NCBI GenBank assembly: GCA_017303875.1
Contig: JAFLBP010000002.1
Coordinates: forward strand, 124,001 to 188,000
Origin: Chitinophagales bacterium
Lineage (GTDB): Bacteria; Bacteroidota; Bacteroidia; Chitinophagales; Saprospiraceae
Length of the DNA stretch: 64,000 bases
Direction: 5' to 3'
How positions within the stretch are numbered: the first letter of the stretch is position 1; every line of letters starts with the position of its first letter. Under the pieces are notes generated by a model. It was not told where the DNA came from and made no database searches. It saw nothing but the letters and a program-made list of their open reading frames with translations. The position numbers and the translations under genes are program-made. Shown here piece by piece: positions 3,058-63,772 of the stretch.

Positions 3058-3068
3058 TTCATTTTCGC

Positions 3069-4055
3069 ATGAATAAGAAAATCATTAATCTCATTTTTAG
3101 AGCAAGCGGTTACAGTATTGAAATGGTATTTAATACCTTGATTAGGGATATTGAGATAGATGGCACATTTGAAGTAGTTAAAATACATCTACCATATAAG
3201 AAAGCTAACATAGCATGTATAATTTTTAACATTATTTTTGTAATGCAAAAGAAGTACCCAATAAATCATATCACTGGCGACACCCACTATGTTGGCCTAG
3301 GTCTCAACTCGAATAATTCTATTTTAACCATACATGATTGTGTAATGATGTATCGAACTTCTGGAATAAAAAAATGGCTTTTCAAAAAACTCTGGCTTGA
3401 TATGCCTATAAAAAATGCTAAGTTTGTAACTACAATTTCAAATAAAACTAAAAACGATATTTTAAAATTTACAAACTGTCCTGAAGAAAAAATTATAGTT
3501 ATCCCTAATCCAGTTAACCCTATCTTTAAGTATACACCATCTACCTTTAATAAAAAAAAACCTAGAATTTTACACTTTGGGAATGCTGATCATAAAAACA
3601 CTGATCGTGTAATATCTGCCCTTAAAAATATGGACGTAGAACTTGTAATAATTGGAAAAAGCGCACTTCCAACATATGAAAGTTCAAGTTTTATATTTTT
3701 ATCGAATTTAAGTAATCAGGAAATCGTCGAACAATATATACTATGCGATATTGTATTATTCCCTTCGTGGTTCGAAGGTTTTGGTATGCCAATAATTGAA
3801 GGCCAGTCAGTTGGTCGTGTTGTAATTACGAGTAACATAGAGCCCATGACTGAAGTAGCAGGAAATGGAGCTCATTTTGTAGACCCCTTTGATATGGATT
3901 CAATTAGGAATGGAGTTAAAAAAGTAATTGATGATGCTGCATATCGAAATGTCCTAATAAGTTTAGGGCTAGAAAATATAAAAAAATATCAATCTGAGGT
4001 GATAGCCCAGCAATACTTAAATTTATATAAAAAAATAATTGCCAAAAATGTCTGA
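3069..4055 (+). CDS. GT4 family glycosyltransferase
   Basis: A 328-residue GT-B enzyme. The C-terminal half shows the retaining GT4 pattern FPSWFEGFGMPIIE at about residues 231-244, with the two glutamates seven residues apart that bind the nucleotide sugar. HFGNADHKNTDR near residue 170 is the start of the nucleotide-binding domain. The N-terminal half is short for GT4 but contains LTIHDCVMM, which is usual for mannosyltransferase-like members. It lies between the polymerase and a second GT4 and shares their AT-rich composition. Donor sugar unknown. Confidence 0.85.
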   Translation: MNKKIINLIFRASGYSIEMVFNTLIRDIEIDGTFEVVKIHLPYKKANIACIIFNIIFVMQKKYPINHITGDTHYVGLGLNSNNSILTIHDCVMMYRTSGIKKWLFKKLWLDMPIKNAKFVTTISNKTKNDILKFTNCPEEKIIVIPNPVNPIFKYTPSTFNKKKPRILHFGNADHKNTDRVISALKNMDVELVIIGKSALPTYESSSFIFLSNLSNQEIVEQYILCDIVLFPSWFEGFGMPIIEGQSVGRVVITSNIEPMTEVAGNGAHFVDPFDMDSIRNGVKKVIDDAAYRNVLISLGLENIKKYQSEVIAQQYLNLYKKIIAKNV

Positions 4056-5190
4056 CATCTTTACGGTTTGCTTCCCAATTGGCTTTTATTATCCTGCAGA
4101 GGGCGGACCCAATAATAGTATTTATTGGATCGCTAAGGCATTAACCCGCAAGGGAATACCCGTTCGATCTATTTCAATGGATAAAGATATTCCTAAAAGT
4201 ATCGCTAGAAATATTTGGCACAATACGAACTATGGGACTGCGATGTACGTACACTCATCAAATTATATATTAGGAATCCGATATGTTTTAAAAACACTAC
4301 ACTTCAAAAGAAAATCAAATATTATCCTGCACTTAACAAGTATTTTTGCCCCAACCTCCATCTTAATAGCGTTAATGTATACGACCATATATCCTAATGT
4401 TAAACTTATTTGGTCCGCACGAGGGGAATTAGACCCTGCCGCATTAATATATAGAAATAAGATTAAAAATCTACTGATATCCATTCACAAATTCCTTTTT
4501 TCCCAAAAAGTAACTTATCATGCAACCTGCATAGAAGAATTAAATTATATACAACAAGCAATTAAACCTCATAATAATTCTATTTTAATCCCTAACTTCA
4601 TCGACTTGCCGACATTGATAAGCACAACTAAAAAAGATTACATTTTGTATTTGGGTAGAATTCACCCTAAAAAAGCAATTGAAAATTTGATAAGCGCATT
4701 TGCAATGATGAAATATCGTAATTCAGGAATTACGCTACAAATTGCAGGTGAATATAACAATAACTATACAAAATTACTTTTAGAGTTAATAAGCAAATTA
4801 AATCTTAATGCTAAGGTTGAATTTGTAGGCCACATCGAAGGCCTCGAAAAGCAACGACTCATTGCCGGAGCAAAAGCCTTGATATTGCCATCGCATTCAG
4901 AAAACTTTGGCAATGTCGTTGTTGAAGCACTGGCACAAAAAACACCAGTGATTGCATCGAAAGGAACCCCCTGGGAGATTTTGGAGCAACATAACGCAGG
5001 CTTTTGGGTAGAAAACAGTCCCCTCGGCTTAGCTACTGCTATTGACAGGCTGTTAGACCTGGATGAGACAAGTTATCAAAATATGTGCGATAATGCACTG
5101 GAGTTGGTAAGTGCCGAGTTTGAGGTTAATCGAAATATTGATAAGTGGATTAATGCTTATCAGAAAGCAATCAATAATGAAGCAAATTGA
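4048..5190 (+). CDS. GT4 family glycosyltransferase
   Basis: A GT-B retaining glycosyltransferase of 380 residues. PIGFYYPAEGGPNNSIYWIAKAL is the usual N-terminal glycine-rich acceptor region (cited here as PAEGGPNNS), YLGRIHPKKAIENLISAF opens the donor domain (LGRIHPKKA), and ENFGNVVVE at about residues 283-292 is the E-x7-E motif. The ATG at 4048 overlaps the previous stop by 8 bases and is preferred over a TTG at 4039. It overlaps the next gene by 14 bases. Composition begins to shift from AT-rich to balanced toward its 3' end. Substrate unknown. Confidence 0.87.
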   Translation: MSDIFTVCFPIGFYYPAEGGPNNSIYWIAKALTRKGIPVRSISMDKDIPKSIARNIWHNTNYGTAMYVHSSNYILGIRYVLKTLHFKRKSNIILHLTSIFAPTSILIALMYTTIYPNVKLIWSARGELDPAALIYRNKIKNLLISIHKFLFSQKVTYHATCIEELNYIQQAIKPHNNSILIPNFIDLPTLISTTKKDYILYLGRIHPKKAIENLISAFAMMKYRNSGITLQIAGEYNNNYTKLLLELISKLNLNAKVEFVGHIEGLEKQRLIAGAKALILPSHSENFGNVVVEALAQKTPVIASKGTPWEILEQHNAGFWVENSPLGLATAIDRLLDLDETSYQNMCDNALELVSAEFEVNRNIDKWINAYQKAINNEAN

Positions 5191-6133
5191 GTTTGAGGGG
5201 ATACAATTATCCAGCCTTGGCTTTGGCTGTACGCAGTTAAGTGCTAATTTTTCTCGTAAGGCAGCTGTAGGGAATCTGGAAACTGCTTTTAACAATGGAA
5301 TTACCCATTTTGATACAGCACGCGCCTATGGTTTTGGCATGGCAGAGTCTATCATGGCACCATTTATCAAAGGGAAACGCGACAAAATCAGTATCACCAG
5401 TAAAATTGGCATTTTGCCAAAAGCAATTCCTGTAAAAAACCTTTTCATACTCAATATTTTAAGGGCAGGCCTAAACATTTCAAGTGCAGTTCGTCGCAGC
5501 GCGATCGCGCATACGGGAGGGGCTAATCAGGAAGTTTTATTTTCTGAGTCAACCGCTCGTCTAAGCTTAGAGGCAAGTCTTAAAGCGCTAAATACGGATT
5601 ATTTGGACATCCTATTGTTGCATGAAAGTAGTGTTGATTACGCCAACAAGGAGGAGACAATTGGCTTTTTACAACAATTGGTAAAGACAGGAAAAATCAG
5701 GGCATTCGGTATTGCAACACAATACAAGAAGTTACCACAAGATTTACGTCTACTGAATTCAGCGTATAAAATACTTCAGTTTGAATCCAATCCACTGGAT
5801 GTTTCAGCATTACAGCATTTGCAAGAGCGCTTTACCATTTTACACAGTGTATTCAGAAATCTTGAGGCTATATCACAGTTATTGGCTCAAAACAAAGCGC
5901 TTTCTGATACCCTCAGCGAGAGAGCCGGGGTGGACTTAAGCACTAAACAGGCGCTGAGTGAATGCTTTCTACGCTATGCTGCTTTTAAAAATCCTGACGG
6001 ATTAACCCTGATAACATCCAGACACAACCAACGTATCCGGGAGAATATACATACCTGGAACCATAGCCGAATTTCAACAGCACAAATCCCGGAGATTTTC
6101 AACATGATTCGGGAAGCGCTGCCAAAGCAATAA
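5177..6133 (+). CDS. Aldo/keto reductase
   Basis: A 318-residue (beta/alpha)8 oxidoreductase. The catalytic tetrad can be placed: D46 and Y51 in HFDTARAYG, K76 in ISITSKIG and H149 in DILLLHE. The C-terminal SRHNQRIREN fits the NADPH-binding end of the family. The start is the ATG at 5177, because LSSLGFGCTQL directly follows as in relatives; an upstream in-frame ATG at 5111 lies well inside the preceding gene. Members in glycan loci reduce sugar or aglycone carbonyls. Placed directly before FkbM and GMC genes, it may act on the same unusual sugar or lipid substrate; that is inference. Confidence 0.88.
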   Translation: MKQIEFEGIQLSSLGFGCTQLSANFSRKAAVGNLETAFNNGITHFDTARAYGFGMAESIMAPFIKGKRDKISITSKIGILPKAIPVKNLFILNILRAGLNISSAVRRSAIAHTGGANQEVLFSESTARLSLEASLKALNTDYLDILLLHESSVDYANKEETIGFLQQLVKTGKIRAFGIATQYKKLPQDLRLLNSAYKILQFESNPLDVSALQHLQERFTILHSVFRNLEAISQLLAQNKALSDTLSERAGVDLSTKQALSECFLRYAAFKNPDGLTLITSRHNQRIRENIHTWNHSRISTAQIPEIFNMIREALPKQ

Positions 6134-6171
6134 TATCGCATCAAAACAGTGGCACAACTAATCACAAGTTC

Positions 6172-6993
6172 ATGGACTACACAAAATTAAACGGTCTCCG
6201 CAATATTGCCCGGGCCCTTGGTATAAACAAATTACTGACCTACCCTGCTCGTCGCCGTGCGGCGGAGCGCATGCGTATATACGAACGAGATAAGCCTAAA
6301 GTAGCAGACTTTGAGCTTGAAGGAAAAAGCATCCGTATGCATGTAACGAATGCTTTTGAATGGATGCGGGTACAGTCCTTTTACGAGGATCAACATATTA
6401 TTAGCGCCATAAAGGCACACCTTCCAGAAAACGGTACCTTTTGGGATGTTGGCTCCAGTATCGGTTTGTATAGCAATTACCTGGCGAAAGTTGTTGGAAA
6501 CCAGGGAAAAGTAATCGCATTTGAGCCAGAAATTCGCTCGCGTGAAAAACTGATGGCAAATATCGCGCTGAATAACAATAACCAAATACGGATTTGCCCT
6601 GTAGGTTTAGGCAAAGAAACTGCTACTTTTAAAATGATACTTGCAGAAGATGCAAGTGCAGGAAATCACCGTCTGAGCGACCATGTTGAAAGCGGTGAAT
6701 TGACACAAGAGGTGCAGGTGTATGGTGCAGATGAGTACCGACAACAGGAAAATCTGCCTCAACCCAACGTTGTAAAGATTGATGTCGAAGGTTTTGAGGA
6801 AGGAGTGATTCTGGGAGCCAGGCATACCCTCAGTTCGCCGGAATGTCGCGCCGTTATTGTTGAAGTACACTTTGCAATTTTATCAGGCAAAGGAGATTCC
6901 GACGCTCCCAGACGGATTGTCGAACACCTTCGGACTTATGGCTTTAAAGAGACTAGTTGGATTGATTCCAGCCATTTAATTGCTGTAAAATGA
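6172..6993 (+). CDS. FkbM family methyltransferase
   Basis: A 273-residue SAM-dependent methyltransferase. The SAM loop is FWDVGSSIGLYSNYLAK near residues 90-106, the following acidic strand is VIAFEPE, and VVKIDVEGFEEG near residues 200-211 is the FkbM signature. FkbM enzymes O-methylate sugars or polyketide hydroxyls. It overlaps the GMC oxidoreductase by four bases (ATGA). The neighbours suggest that a sugar of the surface polymer is the target. Confidence 0.88.
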   Translation: MDYTKLNGLRNIARALGINKLLTYPARRRAAERMRIYERDKPKVADFELEGKSIRMHVTNAFEWMRVQSFYEDQHIISAIKAHLPENGTFWDVGSSIGLYSNYLAKVVGNQGKVIAFEPEIRSREKLMANIALNNNNQIRICPVGLGKETATFKMILAEDASAGNHRLSDHVESGELTQEVQVYGADEYRQQENLPQPNVVKIDVEGFEEGVILGARHTLSSPECRAVIVEVHFAILSGKGDSDAPRRIVEHLRTYGFKETSWIDSSHLIAVK

Positions 6994-8420
6994 TGACATC
7001 AAAGCGTTGCATCATTGGGTGTGGTACTTACGGATCATATCTTTTGCGGCGGCTGATTGAAGCGTTTCCCGACGACGAAATTATAGTACTTGAGTTGGGA
7101 GACCGTCGCTCCCAAAGTGAATCAGAAGCAGGTTTGTATTCTGAGTCTATGGAATCCCAAGCAGCGAGGGCTGGCAGATATTTCGGATTGGGAGGTACTT
7201 CTGCCCGGTGGGGAGGACAGGTTTTGTTTTTTGATGAAAGAGATAATCCGCTTCATGATCCTGTCTGGTCTCAGATTATTGCTATAAATAAACGATATAA
7301 AACACGTGTCATTGAAAATCTTTTTGGAGATCGGAGTATACAGCCACTACTTGAACTTAATGATAAAGGGAATTTAAAAACTGGTATCTGGCTTAAATAC
7401 AACAAACGTAATCTTTTCAAACAAGTCAATTTATACAAAAAGTCCGAAATACAATTACGCACCGGTTGCAGGGTTATTAGCATGAACTTCACACAAGATA
7501 AGCTGCAATCAGTTGAGATCATAAATGAGCAAAGAATACGGCAAATAATTGAAGCAGATATTTTCTATCTTACTGCCGGCGCTATAGAATCATGTAGGAT
7601 TATGTTAGAAATGCGTTCCAAAGGTAAGTTTACGGGCACATCAGACATAGGTAAGCACTTAGGTGATCATTTATCTGTTGAATTATTCAAAATCCAAAAT
7701 TCAACGCCTGCTATACAAGGCGTTAACCTGATTCCGATCTGGCATAAGGGGTCATTAGTTACCAAGCGACTTTTAGTGTATACATCGGATGGACGCGTGG
7801 GGTACATTCAGGGGGTTTTCAATAAACATATTCGCATTTTTACAATATTAAAACAACTTATGTTTGGGAAAAAACAGACAGAATTTAATATAAAAGAGTT
7901 GTTTACAGGTTTAGTTTTCTTATTAAAATTAGCGTGGAACTTACTGATTAAAAGGCAATTATATGCCGACCCGAAAGAGTGGTCGTTACAGCTTGACATA
8001 GAGCAACAATACCCAAATAAACACAAACTAGAGTTGAGTAAAACAAACGACAAGTTTGGAGTTCCCGGAATAAAACTGGACTGGTCTGCTGAACCTGAAG
8101 ATCGCAAATTCATTGAAGAAATCAGTTTGCAATTTCGGGAAATACTGCTCCAAGAGAAACTGCAATTTTCAGATTGCTTTAATAACGTTGTAAATGGCGC
8201 AACAAAGATTGAGGATGTATACCATCCGGTTGGTTTCATGCGTATGGGAACAGATGACAGTGCTGTTACTGATATGCATTGTAAAATAAGAGGTGCAGCA
8301 AATCTATTTCATTTTTCAACAGCCTTGTTTTCAAGTGCCCGGTCAATTAATCCAACCGGAGCAGTATTTTGTCTGATAGAAGCGCATTTAGAACAAGCGA
8401 TACAACAAAAAACAGCATGA
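6990..8420 (+). CDS. GMC family FAD-dependent oxidoreductase
   Basis: A 476-residue flavoprotein. The FAD-binding motif GCGTYG lies at residues 10-15, a second conserved stretch GLGGTSARWGGQ near 66-77, and the C-terminal catalytic His region HPVGFMRMGTDD near 410 with the SINPTGAV ending near 453-460. GMC enzymes oxidise alcohol groups of sugars or other small molecules. Start ATG overlaps the methyltransferase stop; the end overlaps the next glycosyltransferase start (ATGA). The middle is more AT-rich than its 3' neighbours. GMC enzymes are uncommon in O-antigen loci, so the substrate is of interest. Confidence 0.85.
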   Translation: MMTSKRCIIGCGTYGSYLLRRLIEAFPDDEIIVLELGDRRSQSESEAGLYSESMESQAARAGRYFGLGGTSARWGGQVLFFDERDNPLHDPVWSQIIAINKRYKTRVIENLFGDRSIQPLLELNDKGNLKTGIWLKYNKRNLFKQVNLYKKSEIQLRTGCRVISMNFTQDKLQSVEIINEQRIRQIIEADIFYLTAGAIESCRIMLEMRSKGKFTGTSDIGKHLGDHLSVELFKIQNSTPAIQGVNLIPIWHKGSLVTKRLLVYTSDGRVGYIQGVFNKHIRIFTILKQLMFGKKQTEFNIKELFTGLVFLLKLAWNLLIKRQLYADPKEWSLQLDIEQQYPNKHKLELSKTNDKFGVPGIKLDWSAEPEDRKFIEEISLQFREILLQEKLQFSDCFNNVVNGATKIEDVYHPVGFMRMGTDDSAVTDMHCKIRGAANLFHFSTALFSSARSINPTGAVFCLIEAHLEQAIQQKTA

Positions 8421-9247
8421 ATCCGGTGACCGTCGTCATATTAACCTTCAACGAATCCGTCAATATTCGTCAGGCAATCGGCAATACCGTTTCCTGGGCT
8501 CAAGCGGTTTTTGTGCTGGATTCCGGCTCGCAGGATGACACGGTTGAGATCGCCAAATCTATGGGAGCGCAGGTGTTTCACCGGGCTTTTGACAATTATG
8601 CAGCACAGCGAAACCATGCCATTAAAGAATTACCGTTTGCTACCGAATGGATGCTGTTCCTGGATGCAGATGAGTACCTGACGGAAGCACTTAAAGCAGA
8701 AATATCTGATTTATTGGCAGGGCAACCGGAACATCAGGGATACTACCTGAAACGTCGCTTTTACTTCATGGGCAAATGGATTCGTTATGGCGGCTATTAT
8801 CCAACCTGGTTATTGCGCTTGTTCCGCAGGGATGCAGCTTATTGTGAGCGGGAAATCAATGAGCATATCAGGGTTAAGGGTACAACCGGTAAATTATTGA
8901 ACGATTTTGCAGACAACAATCAAAAAGACTTTACAGACTGGTTAAACAAGCACAATAAGTATGCTACCTTTGAAGCAGAACAGCTGGCCTTGCCCTCTCA
9001 AAATCTGGGAAAACTAACGGGGTCTCAAGCCGAACGCAAACAATGGATAAGGGAGCGCATATGGAGTACGCTGCTACCTCCCCTAATAAGACCTTTCTTT
9101 TATTTTATATACCGCTATTTTATTCGCTTAGGTTTTTTAGATGGTAAAACAGGGTTTATCTTTCACTTTATGCATGCCTTAGCATATCAGTTTATTATTG
9201 ACGTGAAATATATTGAGATAAAATTAAAAAACAAACAAAAACAATGA
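8417..9247 (+). CDS. GT2 glycosyltransferase (WaaE/KdtX-like)
   Basis: A 276-residue GT-A enzyme with NPVTVVILTFNES at its N-terminus and the metal-binding LFLDADEYLT near residues 77-86. The layout, with a basic hydrophobic C-terminal tail, resembles the beta-1,4-glucosyltransferase branch of GT2 that acts on LPS core. The ATG at 8417 overlaps the GMC stop (ATGA); an upstream ATG at 8369 lies inside the GMC gene and lacks the family N-terminus. Substrate unproven. Confidence 0.87.
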   Translation: MNPVTVVILTFNESVNIRQAIGNTVSWAQAVFVLDSGSQDDTVEIAKSMGAQVFHRAFDNYAAQRNHAIKELPFATEWMLFLDADEYLTEALKAEISDLLAGQPEHQGYYLKRRFYFMGKWIRYGGYYPTWLLRLFRRDAAYCEREINEHIRVKGTTGKLLNDFADNNQKDFTDWLNKHNKYATFEAEQLALPSQNLGKLTGSQAERKQWIRERIWSTLLPPLIRPFFYFIYRYFIRLGFLDGKTGFIFHFMHALAYQFIIDVKYIEIKLKNKQKQ

Positions 9248-10074
9248 ACATGAACAATCCTGAACAGCTGAAAGAAAAAGTACATGACTTCTGGAATGAA
9301 GCATCCTGCGGAGAAGAATTATTTCTCAAAGGAGCCGATAGCCGGGAGCAATTTCAAAATCAGCAGAAAAGACGTTATGAACTGGAACCGTACATATTCG
9401 ATTTTGCTCAGTTTGGATTACACCACAATAAAAAAGTTTTAGAAATTGGTGTAGGGCTTGGTGCAGATCATCAACAATTTGCGGCTTCGGGCTGTGAATT
9501 ACATGGTTGTGATCTGACCGAACGCGCCATTGAAAATACAAGCAGGCGTTTGCATCTGTTTGGATTAAAATCCAACTTAATTGTTGCAGATGCAGAAAAT
9601 CTACCCTATGCGGATAAAAGTTTTGATCTCGTTTATTCATGGGGGGTAATACATCATTCGCCAGACACTCCTCGCGCCGTTGCCGAAATATACAGAATAC
9701 TAAAACCTGGTGGTGAAACAAGAATTATGATTTATCATACATACAGTATGGTAGGGTTTATGTTATGGTTTCGATATGCCTTACTTACAGGCAAACCTTT
9801 CAGGAGTTTATCATATATCTATGCGCACTATCTTGAAAGTCCGGGTACAAAAGCGTATCGTATAGATGAGGCAAAAAAGATGTTCAATGTGTTTTCTGAT
9901 GTTCATATCAGTATCGAGTACTCACATGGAGATCTTCTTTCAAAAGAAGCAGGTCAGCGGCATCGCGGACTGTTGCTAACCTTGGCGCAGCGTTTATACC
10001 CTGCCGGTTTGATCAGGAAAATATTTCCAAAATACGGGTTATTCATGTTGATCCGAGCTCAAAAAAACTCCTAA
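9244..10074 (+). CDS. Class I SAM-dependent methyltransferase
   Basis: A 276-residue Rossmann methyltransferase. VLEIGVGLGADHQQFA near residues 64-79 is motif I, GCDLTERAIE the acidic loop, ADAENLPYADKSFDLVYS motif II-III, and YRILKPGGE motif IV. It overlaps the GT2 stop (ATGA) and abuts the next gene with no gap. The target could be a sugar or a lipid carrier; the family alone does not say. Confidence 0.87.
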   Translation: MNMNNPEQLKEKVHDFWNEASCGEELFLKGADSREQFQNQQKRRYELEPYIFDFAQFGLHHNKKVLEIGVGLGADHQQFAASGCELHGCDLTERAIENTSRRLHLFGLKSNLIVADAENLPYADKSFDLVYSWGVIHHSPDTPRAVAEIYRILKPGGETRIMIYHTYSMVGFMLWFRYALLTGKPFRSLSYIYAHYLESPGTKAYRIDEAKKMFNVFSDVHISIEYSHGDLLSKEAGQRHRGLLLTLAQRLYPAGLIRKIFPKYGLFMLIRAQKNS

Positions 10075-43887: not shown

Positions 43888-44607
43888 TCACCTCGGTATT
43901 TTAAAATCCATAAACATATTGCCATCATGCAGTTTGAAAGACTTTACCGATTTCATAGTAACGTCATCAAAGCGAAAGTTGATCTGATAGCGAATGCTGT
44001 CAGCTTCGTAGGTTTTCAGGAATTGCGTACATTCCAAGATTCCGTTTTGTTCGGGTATGCTACTAAGGAATACTTTTGCCACGGCTTTTAGTTCGCAATC
44101 TCCCAGCCATAGTCCCAATTCAAAATTCTCTTCCACCACTTGTGTCGTATCCGGCGACAATCTTGTCTTATTCAACAGCAATGGGCCCACTTTGACAGAT
44201 GCATCGATCATCTCTTCTATAGAAAAAAATTTCTGTCGACTATATTTCTCCAATGTAAATTTGACTTCTCCTTCAACGCCTCCATTTCTATAAAAATCTC
44301 TGCTTCCAATTTCAAACACCAATTTATTAACAGGGAAATTACCATTAAGTACTAATTGTGGAGTGGTTGTGGCAATAGTTTGCGCAATTGCGACATAATT
44401 CGAGTCGTTTTTTTGCCCGGAAACTACTCTTAAAGGGCCAAGAATATTCGTTCGGGCATCAATATAACTAGTGCTTGCAGGAATAGACCCAATTGCAAAT
44501 GGAAGCGTGTAATTTTTGTAGCACTCATCATCTCCAAAAAAACTCACCTCCTCTTTTTGGCATCCAAAACACAAAAGTGCTATCAGTGGAAAAAGTAAAT
44601 TGCGCAT
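43888..44607 (-). CDS. Putative lipoprotein, paralogue A
   Basis: A 239-residue protein with signal peptide LLFPLIALLCFGC (lipobox CFGC) and thus likely outer-membrane or periplasmic. It aligns along its whole length with the next gene upstream: both contain LVLNGNFP or IVLNGDFP, an EEMIDASV/EEMIDSSI stretch, ILECTQF/LLECTKF and end in the same residues (FKLHDGNMFMDFKIPR). No known domain recognised; the pattern suggests beta-sandwich. Start ATG at 44607; the longer frame to 44754 overlaps the paralogue's end. Confidence 0.7.
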   Translation of the reverse strand: MRNLLFPLIALLCFGCQKEEVSFFGDDECYKNYTLPFAIGSIPASTSYIDARTNILGPLRVVSGQKNDSNYVAIAQTIATTTPQLVLNGNFPVNKLVFEIGSRDFYRNGGVEGEVKFTLEKYSRQKFFSIEEMIDASVKVGPLLLNKTRLSPDTTQVVEENFELGLWLGDCELKAVAKVFLSSIPEQNGILECTQFLKTYEADSIRYQINFRFDDVTMKSVKSFKLHDGNMFMDFKIPR

Positions 44608-44713
44608 AAGCTGTGTAAGTTTGGGCTTGTACCAACCAAGGCAATTCTTGGGTAGCAGGTTCAGTAAACAATTATTGGCTTGATCCCCCGTCACTTGCCG
44701 TAACGGGGAGCAC

Positions 44714-45448
44714 TCACCTCGGTATTTTAAAATCCATAAACATATTTCCATCATGCAGTTTGAAAGACTGACCAGTTTGCATCGTTACGTCATCAAAGCG
44801 AAAGTTGATTTGATAGCGGATGCTGTCATCTATATAATTTTTTTCAAACTTAGTGCATTCCAGCAGACCACTTTGCTCGGGTACGTTACTGATACATACA
44901 GTAGATGAAGGAGCACCGCATTCTCCAAGAAAGAAATTGAGTATAAAATCTTTCTGTTGCGCCTGTTCAGAGGTATCGGCTGTAAAGCCTTTTTTGCTTA
45001 AAGGTAAAATACCGATCTGAATACTTGAGTCAATCATTTCTTCTAATCCCTGATATCTTTGCGTAGTATGCTTTTCTAAGTAAAAAGCAAATGCTCCTGT
45101 AAGATTATTACTATTTCTATGATATCGTTTATCTATTATTCCGAATGTGAGTTTTCGGCCAGGAAAATCACCATTCAATACTATACTCGGCGTTGTAGTG
45201 TATGCTGTTTGCCATATTGCCGCTTCAAACAAGTAATCATTGCGGCCCGCAACCAAACGCATAGGCCCAAACTCATCCGTTTCAAAGCTAACCACTTGAA
45301 TATTTTGGGCCGGTACCCCTTCGAAGAAAGGCATTCGGAAGCCTTTGAAGCATTCAGCAGTGCCAGAGCCAAAAAAATCACCTAACTCTTTTTCTTTGTC
45401 GCAGCCAAAGAGCAGGATTGTTGTAAAAAGTAAGATGAACTTGCGCAT
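44714..45448 (-). CDS. Putative lipoprotein, paralogue B
   Basis: A 244-residue protein with signal peptide and lipobox LLFGC near residue 16. It is the tandem paralogue of the gene at 43888; the last 35 codons are almost identical at DNA level, which points to recent duplication or gene conversion. Function unknown. A 16-base hairpin lies just upstream. Confidence 0.72.
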   Translation of the reverse strand: MRKFILLFTTILLFGCDKEKELGDFFGSGTAECFKGFRMPFFEGVPAQNIQVVSFETDEFGPMRLVAGRNDYLFEAAIWQTAYTTTPSIVLNGDFPGRKLTFGIIDKRYHRNSNNLTGAFAFYLEKHTTQRYQGLEEMIDSSIQIGILPLSKKGFTADTSEQAQQKDFILNFFLGECGAPSSTVCISNVPEQSGLLECTKFEKNYIDDSIRYQINFRFDDVTMQTGQSFKLHDGNMFMDFKIPR

Positions 45449-48278: not shown

Positions 48279-48420
48279 GAGGGGGATGGATAGTTAATAT
48301 AGTAATGTTTCATTAGCAAGCAGCGCAGCGTTCATACGCGCAATGACCGCCTGCGGTTAAGCTGTTTACCTTCTGTGAGTTAGTAAAATGCTGGCTATAG
48401 ATTTATTGTGATGGCTAAAA

Positions 48421-50409
48421 TCAGGTCGCATTTACTATTTCCTCGATCAGGAGCTCTGAATCTTTTGGGATAAATGGATAGCATTTACCAATAATTTTTG
48501 TAAGTTCTCTCTGTAAGTGACCTTCGCTGGTAAATCCATTTAGCGCAGGGAATACTTCCTTAATGCGACTTTCCAAGTCATGCCCTTTAAATTCTAAATA
48601 CCATTTGGGTATATAAATTTCTCTTCCATTTAAATACTCAACCTTCTTTTTTTCAGAATCGTTTTTTTCCTCTGCCTTAAATTTATCATAATAACGAGCA
48701 AAAAACCAATTTGATATTTCCTGAAGGAATTCAGAACTCTTACTTCCGATCGTATATTGATCTATAGCATCCTCGATTATAAGTTCTTTATGGACATTAT
48801 GTGCGTTCTTTTCCATTAGAAAAATCACAATATATATTGGATCTAACAAATAATTTTCTATGCTATATCTGTTACTCTCACCGTGAATTTTCACAAATTC
48901 AGTTGATGAGTTTTTTAAATCCCAATCGATGATTCCATAAGCCGTTTTACTTCCTGATAACCTCAACTCATGAACGATACTCTTCACTTGATCACAATTC
49001 CCCTTGCCATATCCATTGGAAATAAAATATAAATTAAAAGGATAATTTCTTTCTTGATTTAATTTATTAAATATTAATTGGTAAAATTTGACATCTGTCG
49101 GACTTTCGACAAATACTTGCTTATGATTATTGTAATCAATAGATAACGTAGGAATAAAATCTGTAAGTAATTTCAGGGCGTCATTTTTTTCAATTTTTTG
49201 CAAAGTAGTTTCAGGTTCGTTTTTTAATTGGTAGATTGAATTATCTGGGCAAAGTGCAATGGTTGATGGAGAATGTGTTGTTATTATAACCTTTAATTTG
49301 AATTTTTCAACAAAAGTTTTTTGGAGTACATCAATAAGCAACTTTGACATCTCAGGATGAAGATGTGCGTCCGGCTCATCAAGAACAATGAGTTCAGGAA
49401 GCTCTAATTTGTCATTATAGTATTGACTTGTAAATAGTTTTACTATTAGTCCGATAATAATTTTTTCACCTGACGACAGATCTTGAAAGTTAATTTCTTT
49501 TTCAATTGTCGTCTTTATTAATCTGACTGAAAGCATTGCTTCTGGAGCAAAATTAGTCTGATCAATAGTCGTAAATTGAAACTTTAAATCATATTGATCT
49601 AAAATTTCATTTATAATTATCCACGGCGGTTTAAATTGTACAACAAAATCAGTATCAGAAATTGAGTCGTTTTCCCGACTATAATTCATTTTATCAAAAT
49701 AAAACCTTTGGTTTTGATCTCTTCTCTTCGCATAGTTATAAAAAACAAACTCTATTTGAGAGCCAAAAAGCTTTGGCTCATCTAATAGATATTCAGGAAA
49801 TGGCGTTAAATGAAAATCTACTTCTGTCAGGTCACTAATTGATTTCTTTCTAAAATTTGAAGCAAATTTTGCTACATATAAAGATTGTTTGATTGATTCT
49901 GAGAAAATGCTATTCTTAAATAAATGCCTTAATATTTGATTTAATGTTTTTCCGCTACCAAACCATATAGGATCAATTTCTCTTGACATCTCCATAATAA
50001 GCCCTTCCAATTCTGAAGCTGTAACTGTTTTAATTGCAGCAAATGAAAACTCTTCCGGAACAGAACTTGGCCAAGTATTATTTTCAATACAAATTTCTAA
50101 AAAAATTTTAGTGTTATGTTGTATTTTATTGAACATATTTAAATAAAAATCCAATTTTGACTTCCATGCTAAACTATTCAACGTCGACAAGTTAGAATTT
50201 TCGATTCCTTCAATCTGAATTTTTGATATAACTGGCTCGAAATCTAACTTTAATCCAGATAGTAACTGTTTGGTCGATTTTAATTTTATTAACGCTATAA
50301 GCTGACTTTTTCCACTGCCATTTTTTCCTGTAATTACAGAAAAATTTTCTAATATATCACTAGTGAATGTTGTTAGTGATTTGTATTCACCCTGAAATTT
50401 AATTACCAT
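48421..50409 (-). CDS. AAA ATPase-TOPRIM fusion (OLD/PARIS-like)
   Basis: A 662-residue AT-rich gene unlike its GC-richer neighbours. Walker A GKNGSGKS at 28-35, ABC-type signature LSSGEK near 309, Walker B LIVLDEPDAHLHPEM near 337-351 and the switch His in ITTHSPS near 372 form an AAA15/ABC-type ATPase. From about 430, VFVESPTDVKFY, GIIDWDL and RYSIENYLLDP form a TOPRIM-like domain of the DUF4435 kind. This order matches OLD nucleases and the single-chain form of PARIS (AriA-AriB). The likely role is anti-phage defence; that is inference. Confidence 0.8.
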   Translation of the reverse strand: MVIKFQGEYKSLTTFTSDILENFSVITGKNGSGKSQLIALIKLKSTKQLLSGLKLDFEPVISKIQIEGIENSNLSTLNSLAWKSKLDFYLNMFNKIQHNTKIFLEICIENNTWPSSVPEEFSFAAIKTVTASELEGLIMEMSREIDPIWFGSGKTLNQILRHLFKNSIFSESIKQSLYVAKFASNFRKKSISDLTEVDFHLTPFPEYLLDEPKLFGSQIEFVFYNYAKRRDQNQRFYFDKMNYSRENDSISDTDFVVQFKPPWIIINEILDQYDLKFQFTTIDQTNFAPEAMLSVRLIKTTIEKEINFQDLSSGEKIIIGLIVKLFTSQYYNDKLELPELIVLDEPDAHLHPEMSKLLIDVLQKTFVEKFKLKVIITTHSPSTIALCPDNSIYQLKNEPETTLQKIEKNDALKLLTDFIPTLSIDYNNHKQVFVESPTDVKFYQLIFNKLNQERNYPFNLYFISNGYGKGNCDQVKSIVHELRLSGSKTAYGIIDWDLKNSSTEFVKIHGESNRYSIENYLLDPIYIVIFLMEKNAHNVHKELIIEDAIDQYTIGSKSSEFLQEISNWFFARYYDKFKAEEKNDSEKKKVEYLNGREIYIPKWYLEFKGHDLESRIKEVFPALNGFTSEGHLQRELTKIIGKCYPFIPKDSELLIEEIVNAT

Positions 50410-50708: not shown

Positions 50709-51572
50709 TCCCTCCTCCTTCATCGCTACAAAAAGCCAACGAAGGAACTCCGGCATCGCAACACCCCAGGTTTCGGGGTCATGCGTGCCGTCCTGAATTT
50801 CGCAGTACTGGCTCTGGGCTTCCGATACGCCGCGATGCCGGATGGCTTTAATCAGGTCCCAGGTGTCGTCGATGGAATCAATGATGCCGTTGCGGTTGCG
50901 GTCGTCGGTTTCGTCGCGGGTGCCGCACTGAAACCAGAAACGCTGCGGCGCGGGGCGCTCGTGGGCGCTGTTGTGCACAATGTCGTGCACGATGCGGTCG
51001 GCGTCGGGGTTGTTGTCGTCTACGGGCGACCAGCGCCACCACAGGGCGCCGGAGAAGACGCCGGCAGCGCCAAACACCTCCGGATTGCCCCAGGCGATGT
51101 CGAAGGCCGAGAGGCCGCCCAGCGAAAAGCCGGCGATGGCTGTGCGCGTGCGTTTTTTCTTGATGCGAAAACGGCTGCGCAGCATGGGCAGGAGTTCCTG
51201 CAGGATGAAATCGCGGTGCTGCGGCGCCCGGTCGCCGCGGCCCTTGTAGTCGGGCTGTCGGGCGGTGCCATACTCGCGGTGGCGGTCGTGGTTGGCATAA
51301 ATACCCACCACGATGATGCCTTTAATTTCCTGATTGTAATACATCCGCTCCAGGATGCGGGCGAAGAGCATGCGGGGCAGGTCCTGGCCGTCGTTGAAGA
51401 TCAGCAGGGGATATTTTTTCAGGCTGAGGTGATAATCGCAGGGCAGGTACACATCGAGGTCGACTTCCCGCTGGAGTTGGTCGGAGTAAAAATGCCGGAT
51501 CTGGCGCAGGTGGGGCGCCTTGCGTTGCAGGAGTTCCTGCAAGGTCTCTGCGGGTTTTTGCCAAAAATTCAT
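50697..51572 (-). CDS. Alpha/beta hydrolase, esterase D/enterochelin esterase-like
   Basis: A 291-residue protein. VDLDVYLPCDYHL, LLIFNDGQDLPRM, the nucleophile elbow GFSLGGLSAF (Ser150), FFQCGTRDE-like FWFQCGTRDETDD and DGTHDPETWGVAM follow the order of the esterase family PF00756. DDRNRNGIIDSIDD is a calcium-binding-like acidic loop. No signal peptide. The ATG overlaps the cmk stop by four bases, so it is co-translated with cmk. Substrate unknown. Confidence 0.87.
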   Translation of the reverse strand: MNFWQKPAETLQELLQRKAPHLRQIRHFYSDQLQREVDLDVYLPCDYHLSLKKYPLLIFNDGQDLPRMLFARILERMYYNQEIKGIIVVGIYANHDRHREYGTARQPDYKGRGDRAPQHRDFILQELLPMLRSRFRIKKKRTRTAIAGFSLGGLSAFDIAWGNPEVFGAAGVFSGALWWRWSPVDDNNPDADRIVHDIVHNSAHERPAPQRFWFQCGTRDETDDRNRNGIIDSIDDTWDLIKAIRHRGVSEAQSQYCEIQDGTHDPETWGVAMPEFLRWLFVAMKEEGGVF

Positions 51573-56848: not shown

Positions 56849-59656
56849 TTAGTCCGAAGTGTCATTTGTAGTTCTTTCTGTCAAAGGAACAAACAATTGC
56901 GGATGGCTAGCTCTAAGGTGAGTTTCTATCACAGGAGGGATTCCAGTACAGCCAAAAAGTGAACGGACGCTCATGAGTTGCTCTTTAGTAAGGCCTCCTG
57001 CGCCTTTGAGGTTTGCGCCTTTGAGGTTTGCGCCTTTGAGGTTTGCGCCTTCAAGATTTGCGCCTTTGAGATTTGCGCCTTCTAGATGTGCGCCTTCTAG
57101 ATGTGCGCCTTCTAGATTTGCGCCTTCTAGATTTGCGCCTTCTAGATTTGCGCCTTCTAGACGTACGCTTTCTAGACGCGCGCCTTTGAGATGTGTACCT
57201 ACGAGTTGTGTATTTACAAGATTACTATAAGTTAATTCAGAAAATATCAAGTTTGACAAAGAAAAATCTACACCATATAAATCTTTAATATGTAGAATAC
57301 TGCCCTTAATATCTAAATAATCGAATGATTCATAGGCAAGGCAATTCTGACCATACATTCGCTGGGGCTGTAACCGAACACACCATTCCCCAAATTTTAT
57401 TCTTGTAGCTAATTTTAAAGGAGAAGGTTTTTTCGTATTTCTTGCACAGGCACTGTGTATCACCATCAACGCCTCCGAACAGTTGCGTTCAATGATACGC
57501 TCTTCAGCATGAGTGCGGCGTAATTCTATATTGGGCATTCCATCGTTGATGATTTTACTCAGTAGCCTTGCCATCACTCTTTGGCAACGTTGTATTTCTG
57601 TTATTTTTTTACTTTTTATCTCATCTCTAATAAACTCCATCAAATATGTATCAATGGCTGTCATTCCGGTGATATTGCCCCATTTTTTTAACGCTTCATC
57701 ATCACTCCAGCCCTTATCATAGTTTTTTTGTTTATCCTCCACCTGAGTCGTAATACGAAATGCCATATTGACAATCCGGGCAGCTGTCAGGTATTCACCA
57801 AAACTCTTATGGGTAAATTCAAATGTCTTGTCTCCAGAACCACTGGTACCGTGTTCCCGGAAATAAAACGCCGTTAATAATCGGATGATCCCTTTTTGGG
57901 CCTCCTGTTCGAATTTATCCATCAATGGCTTGAGGTTATTTTCTTGAATATGCTTTGTGATTCTGTCAACGGTAGTTGTTCTTATATCCCCGCTGTGCCA
58001 GGCAGAAATCGCAATTTCTTCCAATATTCTTACGAAATCATCCAGACTAAGCCCTTCGATTGCCTTGTGTTTTTGTGCGTAAGCTCTTTCGTGAACGCCC
58101 TCAATGAGGTCTTTATAAATGATGTTCAGGTTCACCCCTTTGCTAAAATCTATTTTATTGCGCACTAAGCCAAGGGCGACTAAATAGTTGAGCAAAGGTT
58201 GGGCGGTAACTTCGTCTAGTTTTTCAATCCTTAATTCTGTGGGCAGTTGGGTGTATTGAAGTCCTTTGCACAACGAAAATTTACGCCACCATTCATGGCG
58301 CTGGTCTAATTGTAGCAATTCAAAGTATTTCTTTTTGAATTCTACTTTTATGTTTTCCTTTTCTAAGAAATACGGTAGTACATACGAGATATCCTGCTCT
58401 GCGCGAAAAAGATTAGTATTTAATTGTATAGATAATTCCCGTCCGGTAATTAAAAACAAGGCTTTTATATCCTTGTCTCGGTTAATCTGGCTAGAATACG
58501 CATTTAATGCGTGGATAAAATTACCAGCTACTTCTGTAGCAAATTTACCCTGCTGCGAGAGTTCATCCAAACCATCGAAGACCAAGAGGATTTTTTCACT
58601 TCTACCTCCTCCCAGTGGGTGAAATGAAAAATCCAGTTCCGGCATTCTGCGTACAAATCGGTCAACTGCATCGGGTATGTCACCTTGTACATCAAAGTAT
58701 TGGAGTGGAATCAGGATAGTTTTTATATCATTTTTTTTTGCGCGTTCGGCGCACCACATTTTGGCAAATGATGACTTACCCGAGCCCGGGCCGCCGCTGA
58801 TAAACCGAATACACTGGCGGGCATCCTGGGTTTTTAACCATGTATCTAATGCTTCACCTAGCCAAAAAGGTGTTTTTTCTAATTTGTTATTTTCTATGCT
58901 AAGGCTTGCGCTTTCCTTTTTATCCAATACCTTTTTGGTGTAGGCCCGAAGTGGAATATAAATCTGGCGGAGGCTGAATGTTTCGGCAAATACTGGTTCT
59001 TCTATTTGTTTTTGCAAAAAAGCACTGTAACGCGCCCATTCTAACTCCCGTTTGGCTGCGGGCGTAAAGGGGGTTTCTGTTTCCTTTAATATGGTATCAT
59101 AGGTGCCAGGATAGTCTTTCCACTCTTGGTTGAGCGCCAAAACGAAGTAGGCGGGCAACCGGTTAGAAATATTATCCGCGTCTTGCTCAGTAAGCCCGGC
59201 AAATCGAAGCCAACTTTTGAAAGATTGTTTAAAATCTTCCACTAAACTAATCTGCCCCGGATTTTTGAAAAAATCACGATCAATGGAAAGTTCCTTATCT
59301 TCTAAATGTTGGTTCAGGCCATCTAAAAAAGTTACGTAGTTGGTTGAATCATACAGACTTTCATTTTCCTGATGTGTTTCATCCATTAAAAGTCGGACAT
59401 CACAAGACAAATCATGGGCGGCGTTGACCATTGCCTTGAGAATCAACTGATAGGCTAAAATACCTGGATTTTCTTGTATTTTTACAGTGTCCACCAAATC
59501 AAACAGGTCTTTTATAGTATCCTGTATCCCATCAATTTTGGTAGATGAAACGACTGCTTTAGACAGCGTAAGAAAAATCTTTTTAAAATCGAATTTTATT
59601 TGCTGATTGTACCATTTTAATGGTTTTTGTACGGATAACTTAGTAGAGTCTTTCAT
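56849..59656 (-). CDS. NACHT-like STAND NTPase with pentapeptide repeats
   Basis: A 935-residue protein, somewhat AT-rich. Residues 1 to about 280 are an unrecognised helical N-terminal domain. FISGGPGSGKSSFAK near 285-299 is Walker A; KILLVFDGLDELSQQ near 355-369 is Walker B with the double acidic NACHT pattern; FEFTHKSFGEYLTAARI near 630-645 is the winged-helix-like region seen in NACHT defence proteins. Residues about 800-885 are pentapeptide repeats (LEGAN, LKGAN). Such proteins sense phage components and trigger cell death; the N-terminal effector here is not identified. Confidence 0.82.
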   Translation of the reverse strand: MKDSTKLSVQKPLKWYNQQIKFDFKKIFLTLSKAVVSSTKIDGIQDTIKDLFDLVDTVKIQENPGILAYQLILKAMVNAAHDLSCDVRLLMDETHQENESLYDSTNYVTFLDGLNQHLEDKELSIDRDFFKNPGQISLVEDFKQSFKSWLRFAGLTEQDADNISNRLPAYFVLALNQEWKDYPGTYDTILKETETPFTPAAKRELEWARYSAFLQKQIEEPVFAETFSLRQIYIPLRAYTKKVLDKKESASLSIENNKLEKTPFWLGEALDTWLKTQDARQCIRFISGGPGSGKSSFAKMWCAERAKKNDIKTILIPLQYFDVQGDIPDAVDRFVRRMPELDFSFHPLGGGRSEKILLVFDGLDELSQQGKFATEVAGNFIHALNAYSSQINRDKDIKALFLITGRELSIQLNTNLFRAEQDISYVLPYFLEKENIKVEFKKKYFELLQLDQRHEWWRKFSLCKGLQYTQLPTELRIEKLDEVTAQPLLNYLVALGLVRNKIDFSKGVNLNIIYKDLIEGVHERAYAQKHKAIEGLSLDDFVRILEEIAISAWHSGDIRTTTVDRITKHIQENNLKPLMDKFEQEAQKGIIRLLTAFYFREHGTSGSGDKTFEFTHKSFGEYLTAARIVNMAFRITTQVEDKQKNYDKGWSDDEALKKWGNITGMTAIDTYLMEFIRDEIKSKKITEIQRCQRVMARLLSKIINDGMPNIELRRTHAEERIIERNCSEALMVIHSACARNTKKPSPLKLATRIKFGEWCVRLQPQRMYGQNCLAYESFDYLDIKGSILHIKDLYGVDFSLSNLIFSELTYSNLVNTQLVGTHLKGARLESVRLEGANLEGANLEGANLEGAHLEGAHLEGANLKGANLEGANLKGANLKGANLKGAGGLTKEQLMSVRSLFGCTGIPPVIETHLRASHPQLFVPLTERTTNDTSD
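56999..57210 (-). repeat. 15-base tandem repeats coding pentapeptides
   Basis: About 14 nearly identical 15-base units (TTTGCGCCTTTGAGG or TTTGCGCCTTCTAGA on the plus strand), each coding one LxGAN/LxGAH pentapeptide. Near-identity at the DNA level suggests recent expansion. Confidence 0.9.
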
Positions 59657-61089: not shown

Positions 61090-61911
61090 ATGCAATTCGT
61101 AGATATAAAAAATGATATAGCCTTCAGGAAGATTTTCGGCAATGAAACCAAGAAAATCATCCTCATTTCTTTCCTCAACGCAATTATGAAGTTGAAGGAT
61201 AGTCGTGCGATTGCGGATGTAGAAATTCTCAACCCGTATCAGCTACCGATTATCAAAAACCTGAAAGCTTCTATCATTGATATAAAAGCACGGGACAAAA
61301 AAGGCAAAACCTACATCATTGAAATGCAGGTGGCCGAACCTGATGGCCTGGACAAGCGACTGCTGTATTATGCCGGTAAAGAGTATTCGCAGCAAATTGA
61401 AAGCGGCGAATATTATTCTGAGCTAAAACCGGTTGTTTTTATCGGCATTTTCGATTTCAGGTTTACTCAAGGGGATAAATACCTTTCGCATCACGCGGTT
61501 TGTGATGTTGAAAACGGCGAACGGATCATCAAGGATATGGATTTTTATTTTATCGAATTGCCGAAGTTTACCAAACCCCTGGAAGTACTTACGGAAATTA
61601 CAGACAAGTGGCTGTTTTTTATTAAAGAGGCTGAAAACCTGACGCTCATTCCTGAAAATATTGATGATGAGGGGCTAAAAGCTGCCTATCAGGATGCCAA
61701 TAAATTTTATTGGGGAAAAGAAGAGTTGGCTGCTTATGATTATGCGGCCATGCGTGAACAAGATGAAAGAGGCAAAGTAAGTCTGGCCGAAAAACGGGCT
61801 GCCCAAAATGAAAAAATTGAAATCGCCAGAAAAATGAAACAAAAAGGACTTTCCGACAAGGACATATCGGATTTTACAGGTCTGGCGGAGGAAGAAATCA
61901 ATCAACTATAG
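61090..61911 (+). CDS. Rpn family nuclease / PD-(D/E)XK transposase-like
   Basis: A 273-residue protein. VDIKNDIAFRKIFGNETKKI is the family's opening; ASIIDIKARDKKGKTYIIEMQ gives the active-site D..E-x-Q of the PD-(D/E)XK fold. SEKRAAQN-type LAEKRAAQNEKIEIARKM and DKDISDFTGLAEEEIN form the C-terminal tail. Rpn proteins promote RecA-independent recombination and resemble transposases but have no known terminal repeats. It starts a run of three same-strand genes. Confidence 0.92.
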   Translation: MQFVDIKNDIAFRKIFGNETKKIILISFLNAIMKLKDSRAIADVEILNPYQLPIIKNLKASIIDIKARDKKGKTYIIEMQVAEPDGLDKRLLYYAGKEYSQQIESGEYYSELKPVVFIGIFDFRFTQGDKYLSHHAVCDVENGERIIKDMDFYFIELPKFTKPLEVLTEITDKWLFFIKEAENLTLIPENIDDEGLKAAYQDANKFYWGKEELAAYDYAAMREQDERGKVSLAEKRAAQNEKIEIARKMKQKGLSDKDISDFTGLAEEEINQL

Positions 61912-62579: not shown

Positions 62580-62614
62580 CAAATCGGGAATTGAAATCCC
62601 GATCTGCAAAAAAA

Positions 62615-63772
62615 ATGATTCCACGACAAGCATCAGGTAAGTTGCTCCAATTAGCACAGCAATTCAGGGCTGTGGCCATTTTAGGCCCACGACAAAGCGG
62701 TAAAACAACGCTTGCCAAGGCCTGTTTTCCCGAAAAACCTTATGTTTCCTTAGAGACACCCACGATGCGGCGTTTTGCGTTGGAGGATCCCGTCCAATTT
62801 CTCCGGCAATATCCGGATGGGGCAATATTCGACGAAATTCAACGTGCCCCGGAGTTGCTTTCGTGGTTGCAACAAGATTTGGACGAAACCCCCTCGGTAA
62901 GGGGAAAGTTTGTACTCACGGGATCCAACAACCTGCTTTTGCTCGAAAACATTACGCAGACCCTGGCCGGTCGGATCGCCCATATTGAATTGTTGCCCTT
63001 CTCCGTAGCTGAGTTACAGGCTTTGCCTGAAGCGTTGTCCGATATAAACACCTTACTTTGGAAAGGCGGCTACCCTCCGGTTCAGGCCGATGGGATAGGG
63101 CCAGAGGATTGGTTTTCAATGTACATCCGTACTTATGTCGAGCGCGATGTCAGACAAATCAAGAATATTGAAAACTTACTTTTATTTGAGCGTTTTTTAT
63201 CCCTCTGTGCGGGCCGTGTGGGGCAGGAAATCAACTACTCTGCACTGAGCAATGAACTGGGTGTTGATCGTAAAACCATCCAATCCTGGCTGGGTATTTT
63301 ACAGGCCAGTTACCTGGTTTACCTCTTACCACCTTTCTACAACAACTTTCAAAAGCGCGTACTCAAAACACCCAAGCTGTACTTTTTTGATACGGGGTTA
63401 GTTTGCGCGTTGTTGCAAATCAGTCAGCCAAACATGTTATCGCTCCACCCGTTTCGGGGAGCCTTGTTTGAGAATTTTATCGTCACGGAACTCATCAAAA
63501 ATCGCTTCAATCAGGGTAAGCGCTCCAATTTGTATTTCTGGCGTGAATCATCCGGCAATGAGTTAGATGTCATCCTGGATGAGGGCTTGCGCCAGTTTCC
63601 CATTGAAATCAAAAGCGGTCAGACCATTCAATCCGCGTGGACGAAGGGCATTTTATATTGGCAACAGCTGAGCGGTCAATCCGGCGGGCTTATCCTGCAC
63701 GGTGGCAACGAGAACCAGCGCCGCAGCGGTGGGATTGATTTCCTTTCCTGGGAAAAAGTGGCTGGACTGTAG
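62615..63772 (+). CDS. AAA_14/DUF4143 ATPase
   Basis: A 385-residue protein. Walker A GPRQSGKTT at 24-32, Walker B GAIFDEIQRAPEL near 74-86, FVLTGSNNLLLL sensor, then a DUF4143 domain (winged helix EINYSALSNELGVDRKTIQSWL and nuclease-like FWRESSGNELDVILDEG with PIEIKSG). Such two-domain ATPases are common accessory genes of unknown role. The ATG at 62615 is preferred over a TTG at 62591. Confidence 0.92.
   Translation: MIPRQASGKLLQLAQQFRAVAILGPRQSGKTTLAKACFPEKPYVSLETPTMRRFALEDPVQFLRQYPDGAIFDEIQRAPELLSWLQQDLDETPSVRGKFVLTGSNNLLLLENITQTLAGRIAHIELLPFSVAELQALPEALSDINTLLWKGGYPPVQADGIGPEDWFSMYIRTYVERDVRQIKNIENLLLFERFLSLCAGRVGQEINYSALSNELGVDRKTIQSWLGILQASYLVYLLPPFYNNFQKRVLKTPKLYFFDTGLVCALLQISQPNMLSLHPFRGALFENFIVTELIKNRFNQGKRSNLYFWRESSGNELDVILDEGLRQFPIEIKSGQTIQSAWTKGILYWQQLSGQSGGLILHGGNENQRRSGGIDFLSWEKVAGL

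What the first reader, a model, noticed from the sequence alone, without database searches (positions are those of the whole stretch)
48421..50409. Candidate single-chain PARIS/OLD-like anti-phage protein
The sequence shows an ABC/AAA15-type ATPase (Walker A at 28-35, SSGEK signature, DEPDAHLHPE, THSPS) fused to a TOPRIM-like domain with VESPTDVKFY, IIDWDL and YSIENYLLD. Known: PARIS couples the ATPase AriA with the TOPRIM nuclease AriB (DUF4435), as two genes or one fusion; OLD proteins share the layout. The gene is AT-rich among GC-richer housekeeping genes and stands alone, which suits a transferred defence gene. The DUF4435 assignment is my reading of short motifs.
Basis: partly seen in the sequence, partly recalled or inferred. 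Interest (0 to 1): 0.75.

Follow-up and report, generated by a model that had tools for sequence, protein, structure and literature searches.

The report
Divergent single-protein PARIS-type phage-defence gene
A lone, AT-rich bacterial gene encodes one protein that joins an ATP-powered sensor to a nuclease domain shaped like the tRNA-cutting enzyme of the known PARIS anti-phage system, so it is most likely a distant one-piece version of that system rather than something new in kind.

Summary
One intact 662-codon ORF lies on the minus strand at 48421-50409, with every motif named. It is 30% GC beside 50-60% GC neighbours and has no operon partner. The C-terminal domain (residues 418-662) is AriB-like. 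Its AlphaFold2 model (pLDDT 91) matches AriB of the PARIS complex best in the PDB (Z 12.5, 194 residues, 14% identity), ahead of OLD (8.1) and Gabija/retron TOPRIMs (5-6). A profile of 31 homologues matches 11 AriB proteins of the same phylum (97-98%) but not OLD TOPRIM domains. Sequence evidence is weaker: the Pfam DUF4435 score (22.3 bits) is below the cut-off of 27. The ATPase half does not separate AriA from OLD, PtuA or SMC heads. Walker A/B, signature, H-loop and TOPRIM E435/D495/D497 are present in all 31 homologues, most of them from viral or prophage contigs. The gene was not found in 36 congeners. No retron reverse transcriptase was seen. One-gene ariA-ariB fusions are already published, so this is a divergent member of a known kind. 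The most likely action is ATPase-gated, trigger-activated RNA (probably tRNA) cleavage that aborts infection. The trigger and substrate are inferred.

The parts
48421..50409 (-). Whole gene: single-chain ABC ATPase-TOPRIM protein, 662 aa
   Evidence: homologues
49195..50409 (-). N-terminal ABC/SMC-type ATPase head, residues 1-405 (helical insert about residues 80-290)
   Evidence: Pfam AAA_21/AAA_15 above cut-off; AlphaFold2 model and VIA-align
50305..50328 (-). Walker A GKNGSGKS, residues 28-35 (K34 in 31/31)
49465..49476 (-). ABC signature SSGE, residues 312-315
49375..49392 (-). Walker B LIVLDE, residues 340-345, followed by D-loop PDAHLHPE
49267..49281 (-). H-loop TTHSP, residues 377-381
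48424..49158 (-). C-terminal AriB-like TOPRIM plus helical extension, residues 418-662
49105..49107 (-). TOPRIM glutamate E435 (aligns with E26 of E. coli AriB through AriB profiles)
   Evidence: 31/31
48919..48927 (-). TOPRIM D495-W-D497 metal-site motif
   Evidence: 31/31 for both aspartates
48850..48858 (-). ENY motif, residues 518-520 (IENYLLDP; E. coli AriB has LENYFFNP)
48577..48585 (-). GHD, residues 609-611, matching the G(K/H) motif near the AriB C-terminus

Best explanation
A stand-alone abortive-infection gene of the PARIS (AriA-AriB, OLD class 4) type in which sensor and effector are one chain. Residues 1-405 form an ABC ATPase head (shown by profiles and model) that probably assembles with ATP and holds the nuclease inactive (inferred from PARIS). 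A phage protein made during infection is sensed by the ATPase or its helical insert (inferred). The AriB-like TOPRIM (fold and catalytic residues shown) is then switched on as a two-metal-ion nuclease that cuts RNA, most likely tRNA, stopping translation before the phage matures (inferred from AriB). Because the effector is covalently tied to the ATPase, activation would have to be rearrangement or pairing of TOPRIM domains, not release of a free AriB dimer (inference).
For: PADLOC AriAB is the best of 5027 models (85.8 bits, E 7e-25). C-terminus alone: AriAB E 1.1e-7 and AriB E 7.8e-7. C-terminal model pLDDT 91; AriB is the only Foldseek hit under 1e-3; VIA Z 12.5, rmsd 3.8, 194 aligned residues, against 8.1 for OLD and 5-6 for Gabija and retron TOPRIMs. 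hhalign to 11 AriB proteins: probability 98.4 and 97.2; OLD TOPRIM set 0.1. Full-length match to compact ATPase-DUF4435 fusions, 99.7%, 383 columns. Catalytic residues in 31/31 homologues. Homologues lie on phage/prophage contigs beside integrase, terminase, tail and DNA methyltransferase genes, next to a type I restriction locus and between TIR-domain genes. Patchy: 2 of 395 genomes of the phylum, none of 36 congeners. AriB tRNase activity and fused ariAB are published (PMC12409363, PMC9122126).
Against: Pfam DUF4435 is below its cut-off (22.3 against 27 bits), and only 16 of 31 homologues show even a weak DUF4435 match. The ATPase half is not specifically AriA-like. The AriB lysines K60/K64 needed for tRNA contact are not clearly conserved (my reading), so the substrate may differ. 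No activity was tested. Hexamer assembly, triggers and tRNA cleavage are carried over from E. coli PARIS.
Confidence: 0.72

Rival explanations
1. A class 1 OLD-type nuclease: same ATPase-TOPRIM layout, but a DNA nickase/exonuclease that attacks phage or damaged DNA.
For: Same domain order; PADLOC Old E 4e-12; OLD TOPRIM is the third-ranked fold, Z 8.1; the ATPase profile matches OLD at 98.9%; stand-alone gene, as in class 1.
Against: The Old hit's best stretch is the ATPase (266-412). OLD TOPRIM profile match 0.1% against 97-98% for AriB. The fold is clearly closer to AriB.
Confidence: 0.13
2. Effector of a type I-B retron (ATPase-TOPRIM, class 3 OLD) with a reverse transcriptase and msDNA encoded elsewhere or lost.
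For: PADLOC ATPase-Toprim_I-B is a close second (84.3 bits) and hits 31/31 homologues.
Against: That match rests on the ATPase: only 1 of 31 C-termini hits it. No retron protein reached E 1e-10 among 78 neighbouring proteins of homologues. No retron RNA in the flanks. The gene is monocistronic across loci.
Confidence: 0.04
3. A non-defence housekeeping ATPase-nuclease, as found for the archaeal OLD-family protein Cran1 (PMC12796447), or an AT-rich gene drifting without function.
For: No phenotype is known; one relative sits alone between housekeeping genes.
Against: Intact ORF with all catalytic residues; patchy and not found in congeners; homologues on phage contigs and plasmids, some beside restriction and TIR genes. 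A housekeeping gene would be broadly kept in the genus.
Confidence: 0.07

Closest known systems
PARIS, fused form (single-gene ariA-ariB; PADLOC AriAB PDLC02981)
   Same: One chain, ABC ATPase then AriB-like TOPRIM; best PADLOC model; full-length profile match to ATPase-DUF4435 fusions
   Different: Longer and very divergent lineage; DUF4435 score under Pfam's cut-off; set apart by a long branch from the two compact fusions in the tree
Two-gene PARIS of E. coli B185 (AriA + AriB, PDB 8ux9, 8v46)
   Same: AriB fold over 194 residues, acidic residues of the metal site, ENY and GH motifs
   Different: 14% identity; TOPRIM cannot be released; D-x-D instead of D-x-E at the second motif; lysines K60/K64 not evidently kept
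OLD class 1 (P2 Old)
   Same: ABC ATPase plus TOPRIM in one stand-alone gene
   Different: C-terminal profile does not match; lower structural score
Retron type I-B ATPase-TOPRIM and retron Eco8 effector
   Same: ATPase-TOPRIM in one chain
   Different: No RT or msDNA; C-terminus does not match the model
IbfA / HEC-04 (ATPase-TOPRIM abortive-infection protein of plasmid pUA1135, PMC12111858)
   Same: Single-gene two-domain ATPase-TOPRIM that reduces phage yield
   Different: 518 aa, enterobacterial; not compared by sequence here

Membership tests
PARIS (AriAB fusion) | AAA_15/AAA_21 ATPase domain above Pfam cut-off | tested here: met
   AAA_21 63.3 bits (cut-off 27), AAA_15 48.1 (32.1)
PARIS (AriAB fusion) | Match to a fused AriAB profile (Rousset 2022, PMC9122126: thresholds 80 and 20 bits for their two fusion models) | tested here: met
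   PADLOC AriAB 85.8 bits, E 7e-25; that PADLOC's model equals either Rousset model was not checked
PARIS (two-gene form, and Pfam DUF4435) | DUF4435 above Pfam's gathering score (27), the rule for the two-gene form | tested here: not met
   22.3 bits, E 1.2e-4. So it is not filed as a Pfam DUF4435 member or as classical two-gene PARIS, only as a divergent PARIS-type fusion
PARIS (AriAB fusion) | C-terminal domain with the AriB fold | tested here: met
   8ux9_A Z 12.5, rmsd 3.8, 194 aligned, 14% identity, well above OLD at 8.1
PARIS (AriAB fusion) | TOPRIM catalytic acids (AriB E26 and aspartates) | tested here: met
   E435, D495, D497 in 31/31; aligned with AriB motifs
PARIS (AriAB fusion) | AriA-type ATPase half | tested here: inconclusive
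   AriA Z 13.4, among SMC, PtuA and retron heads of equal or higher Z; profile match to OLD is as strong
PARIS (AriAB fusion) | tRNA-contacting lysines K60/K64 of AriB | tested here: inconclusive
   Region alignable only loosely
PARIS (AriAB fusion) | AriA hexamer, trigger such as Ocr, tRNA cleavage, abortive infection | not testable with these tools
   needs experiment
OLD class 1 | OLD-type TOPRIM domain by sequence profile | tested here: not met
   hhalign probability 0.1 against a set of OLD C-termini
Retron type I-B | Adjacent reverse transcriptase and msr-msd | tested here: not met
   none in the window neighbourhood or among 78 neighbours of homologues
Gabija (OLD class 2) | Adjacent GajB helicase | tested here: not met
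   neighbours are PagL-like, esterase and cytidylate kinase genes

The most novel reading that the evidence does not exclude
This lineage is a separate clade of ATPase-AriB proteins, common in prophages, that works without releasing its effector: sensor and nuclease act as one assembly, possibly on an RNA other than the tRNAs cut by E. coli AriB.
Probability: 0.3. Interest if true: 0.55.

Novelty: new member of a known kind. Interest (0 to 1): 0.35.

Why it matters
Fused ariAB genes were noted when PARIS was described, but I found no experimental study of one in the papers I could read. In two-gene PARIS the AriA hexamer is thought to let go of three AriB copies, which then pair up. A single chain cannot do that, so this protein would test whether release is needed at all. 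Its prophage homologues also add candidates for phage-against-phage competition.

Tried and rejected
Two scans of public collections with the single protein found no relatives; they needed the six-sequence alignment. Full-length fold search was dominated by the ATPase head and said nothing about the C-terminus, so the C-terminus was folded alone. PDB sequence search with the C-terminal profile gave only chance hits; a profile of the two-gene AriB proteins themselves barely reaches E. coli AriB (E 0.07), so that absence means little. A clean empty site could not be shown: the esterase-cytidylate kinase pair is kept in the genus without this gene, but the gene on the other side lies elsewhere in relatives. 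Flanking repeats were sought; the best, 21 nt at 86% (48410-48430 and 50841-50861), is within reach of chance. Rfam gave only sub-threshold chance matches. An attempt to compare with a set of compact-fusion C-termini failed for lack of the motif used to cut them. The two primary PARIS structure papers are not held.

Full report
OBSERVATION. The interval holds one intact ORF on the minus strand, 48421-50409, ATG to TGA, 662 aa; the plus strand is closed by stops. The gene has 30.4% GC (GC3 24.7%) beside mostly 50-64% GC neighbours. Genes at the left end of the window (Wzy-like polymerase, glycosyltransferase) are as AT-rich, so composition hints at transfer but does not prove it.

DOMAINS. Pfam puts AAA_21 and AAA_15 on the N-terminal part, above their cut-offs. 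Among 5027 defence models of PADLOC the fused AriAB model is first (85.8 bits, E 7e-25), with the retron I-B ATPase-Toprim model close behind (84.3 bits). Most of both scores comes from the ATPase, so the C-terminus was tested alone. It hits AriAB (1.1e-7) and AriB (7.8e-7) and nothing else in PADLOC, and DUF4435 in Pfam below the gathering score (22.3 against 27 bits). PADLOC's AriA and AriB models have almost the lengths of the Pfam AAA_21/AAA_15 and DUF4435 models, so I do not count them as independent evidence.

RELATIVES. A 39% identical protein stands alone between unrelated genes in another genome of the phylum. The four closest plasmid relatives are at 26-31% identity: one next to a type I restriction locus, one between TIR-domain genes. 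An alignment of these found about 30 complete or nearly complete homologues on viral contigs of IMG/VR. Their neighbours include integrase, terminase, tail and DNA methyltransferase genes, with no retron component at the cut-off used. The gene is nearly always a single transcription unit without a fixed partner. In 31 aligned homologues the Walker A lysine, signature glutamate, Walker B pair, H-loop histidine and TOPRIM E435, D495 and D497 never change. All 31 match PADLOC's AriAB and I-B models as whole proteins. Of the C-termini alone, 14 match AriB, 13 AriAB and 1 the I-B model.

STRUCTURE. The full model (pLDDT 80, pTM 0.47) has an ABC head that resembles SMC, PtuA, retron and AriA heads about equally well (AriA 8ux9_B Z 13.4 in a list topped by 15.4), so the head does not decide the family. 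The C-terminal domain alone is predicted with high confidence (pLDDT 91, pTM 0.88). Its only Foldseek match under 1e-3 is AriB of the PARIS complex. VIA-align gives AriB Z 12.5 (rmsd 3.8, 194 residues, 14% identity), then OLD 8.1-7.2, Gabija and retron TOPRIMs 5-6. In Foldseek's own alignment the TM-scores are low (about 0.3), so the ranking and the VIA alignment carry the argument.

PROFILE COMPARISON. AriB proteins of the same phylum (most beside an ATPase gene) were aligned. The C-terminal profile matches them at 98.4% (in the Python box) and 97.2%, aligning the TOPRIM glutamate, the D-x-D, the ENY motif and the later G(K/H) motif. A set of OLD C-termini gave 0.1%. The full-length profile matches compact ATPase-DUF4435 fusions at 99.7% over 383 columns. 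The N-terminal profile matches AriA (98.1%) and OLD (98.9%) alike. hhalign was run pair by pair, so its E-values should be read only against each other.

SITE AND SPREAD. The gene was found in none of 36 congeners and in 2 of 395 genomes of the phylum, its own included. The esterase-cytidylate kinase pair beside it recurs in the genus without it; the PagL-like gene on the other side lies elsewhere in relatives. So the gene sits at a break in gene order, but an exact empty site was not shown. In a FastTree tree the window protein pairs with the 39% relative (support 1.0), within a group that mixes viral-contig and plasmid proteins.

MECHANISM. Shown: domains, catalytic residues, AriB-like fold, mobile distribution. 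From literature: AriA is an ABC hexamer that holds three AriB and reacts to phage proteins such as Ocr; [quoted passage not shown] one-gene fusions exist (PMC9122126); PARIS has been called OLD class 4, and several OLD-family clades remain uncharacterised (PMC12796447). Inferred: that this protein senses a phage protein, and that it cuts RNA. Because sensor and nuclease are one chain, activation must occur inside the assembly.

VERDICT. The protein is a divergent single-chain PARIS-type member; it fails the strict DUF4435 cut-off but passes the fusion profile and the fold test. Interest is moderate: the kind is known, the one-chain activation question is open.

Noticed in passing
window 56849-59656 (-): A 935-aa protein with a NACHT N-terminal helical domain (NNH3) and pentapeptide repeats, a possible second defence-type (NACHT NTPase) gene about 6.4 kb from this one.
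   Followed up: no
window 61090-61911 (+) and 62591-63772 (+): A PD-(D/E)XK transposase-family protein and an AAA_14/DUF4143 ATPase near the right end: mobile-type genes close to both defence-like genes.
   Followed up: no
window 43888-45448 (-): Two tandem lipoprotein-like ORFs (288 and 244 aa) with nearly identical C-terminal tails and no Pfam match: a likely tandem duplication with a diverged front part.
   Followed up: no
window 350-10074 (+): AT-rich polysaccharide-type gene cluster (Wzy-like polymerase, glycosyltransferase, methyltransferases), its first genes as AT-rich as the defence gene.
   Followed up: partly
window 48410-48430 and 50841-50861: Imperfect 21-nt direct repeat (86%) spanning the gene, one copy at its 3' end and one inside the neighbouring esterase gene; could be a trace of insertion or chance.
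   Followed up: no
L095:1177-3690 (-): An 838-aa or longer relative with extra N-terminal sequence before the ATPase and a weak match to the C-terminal profile: another ATPase-AriB-like architecture.
   Followed up: no
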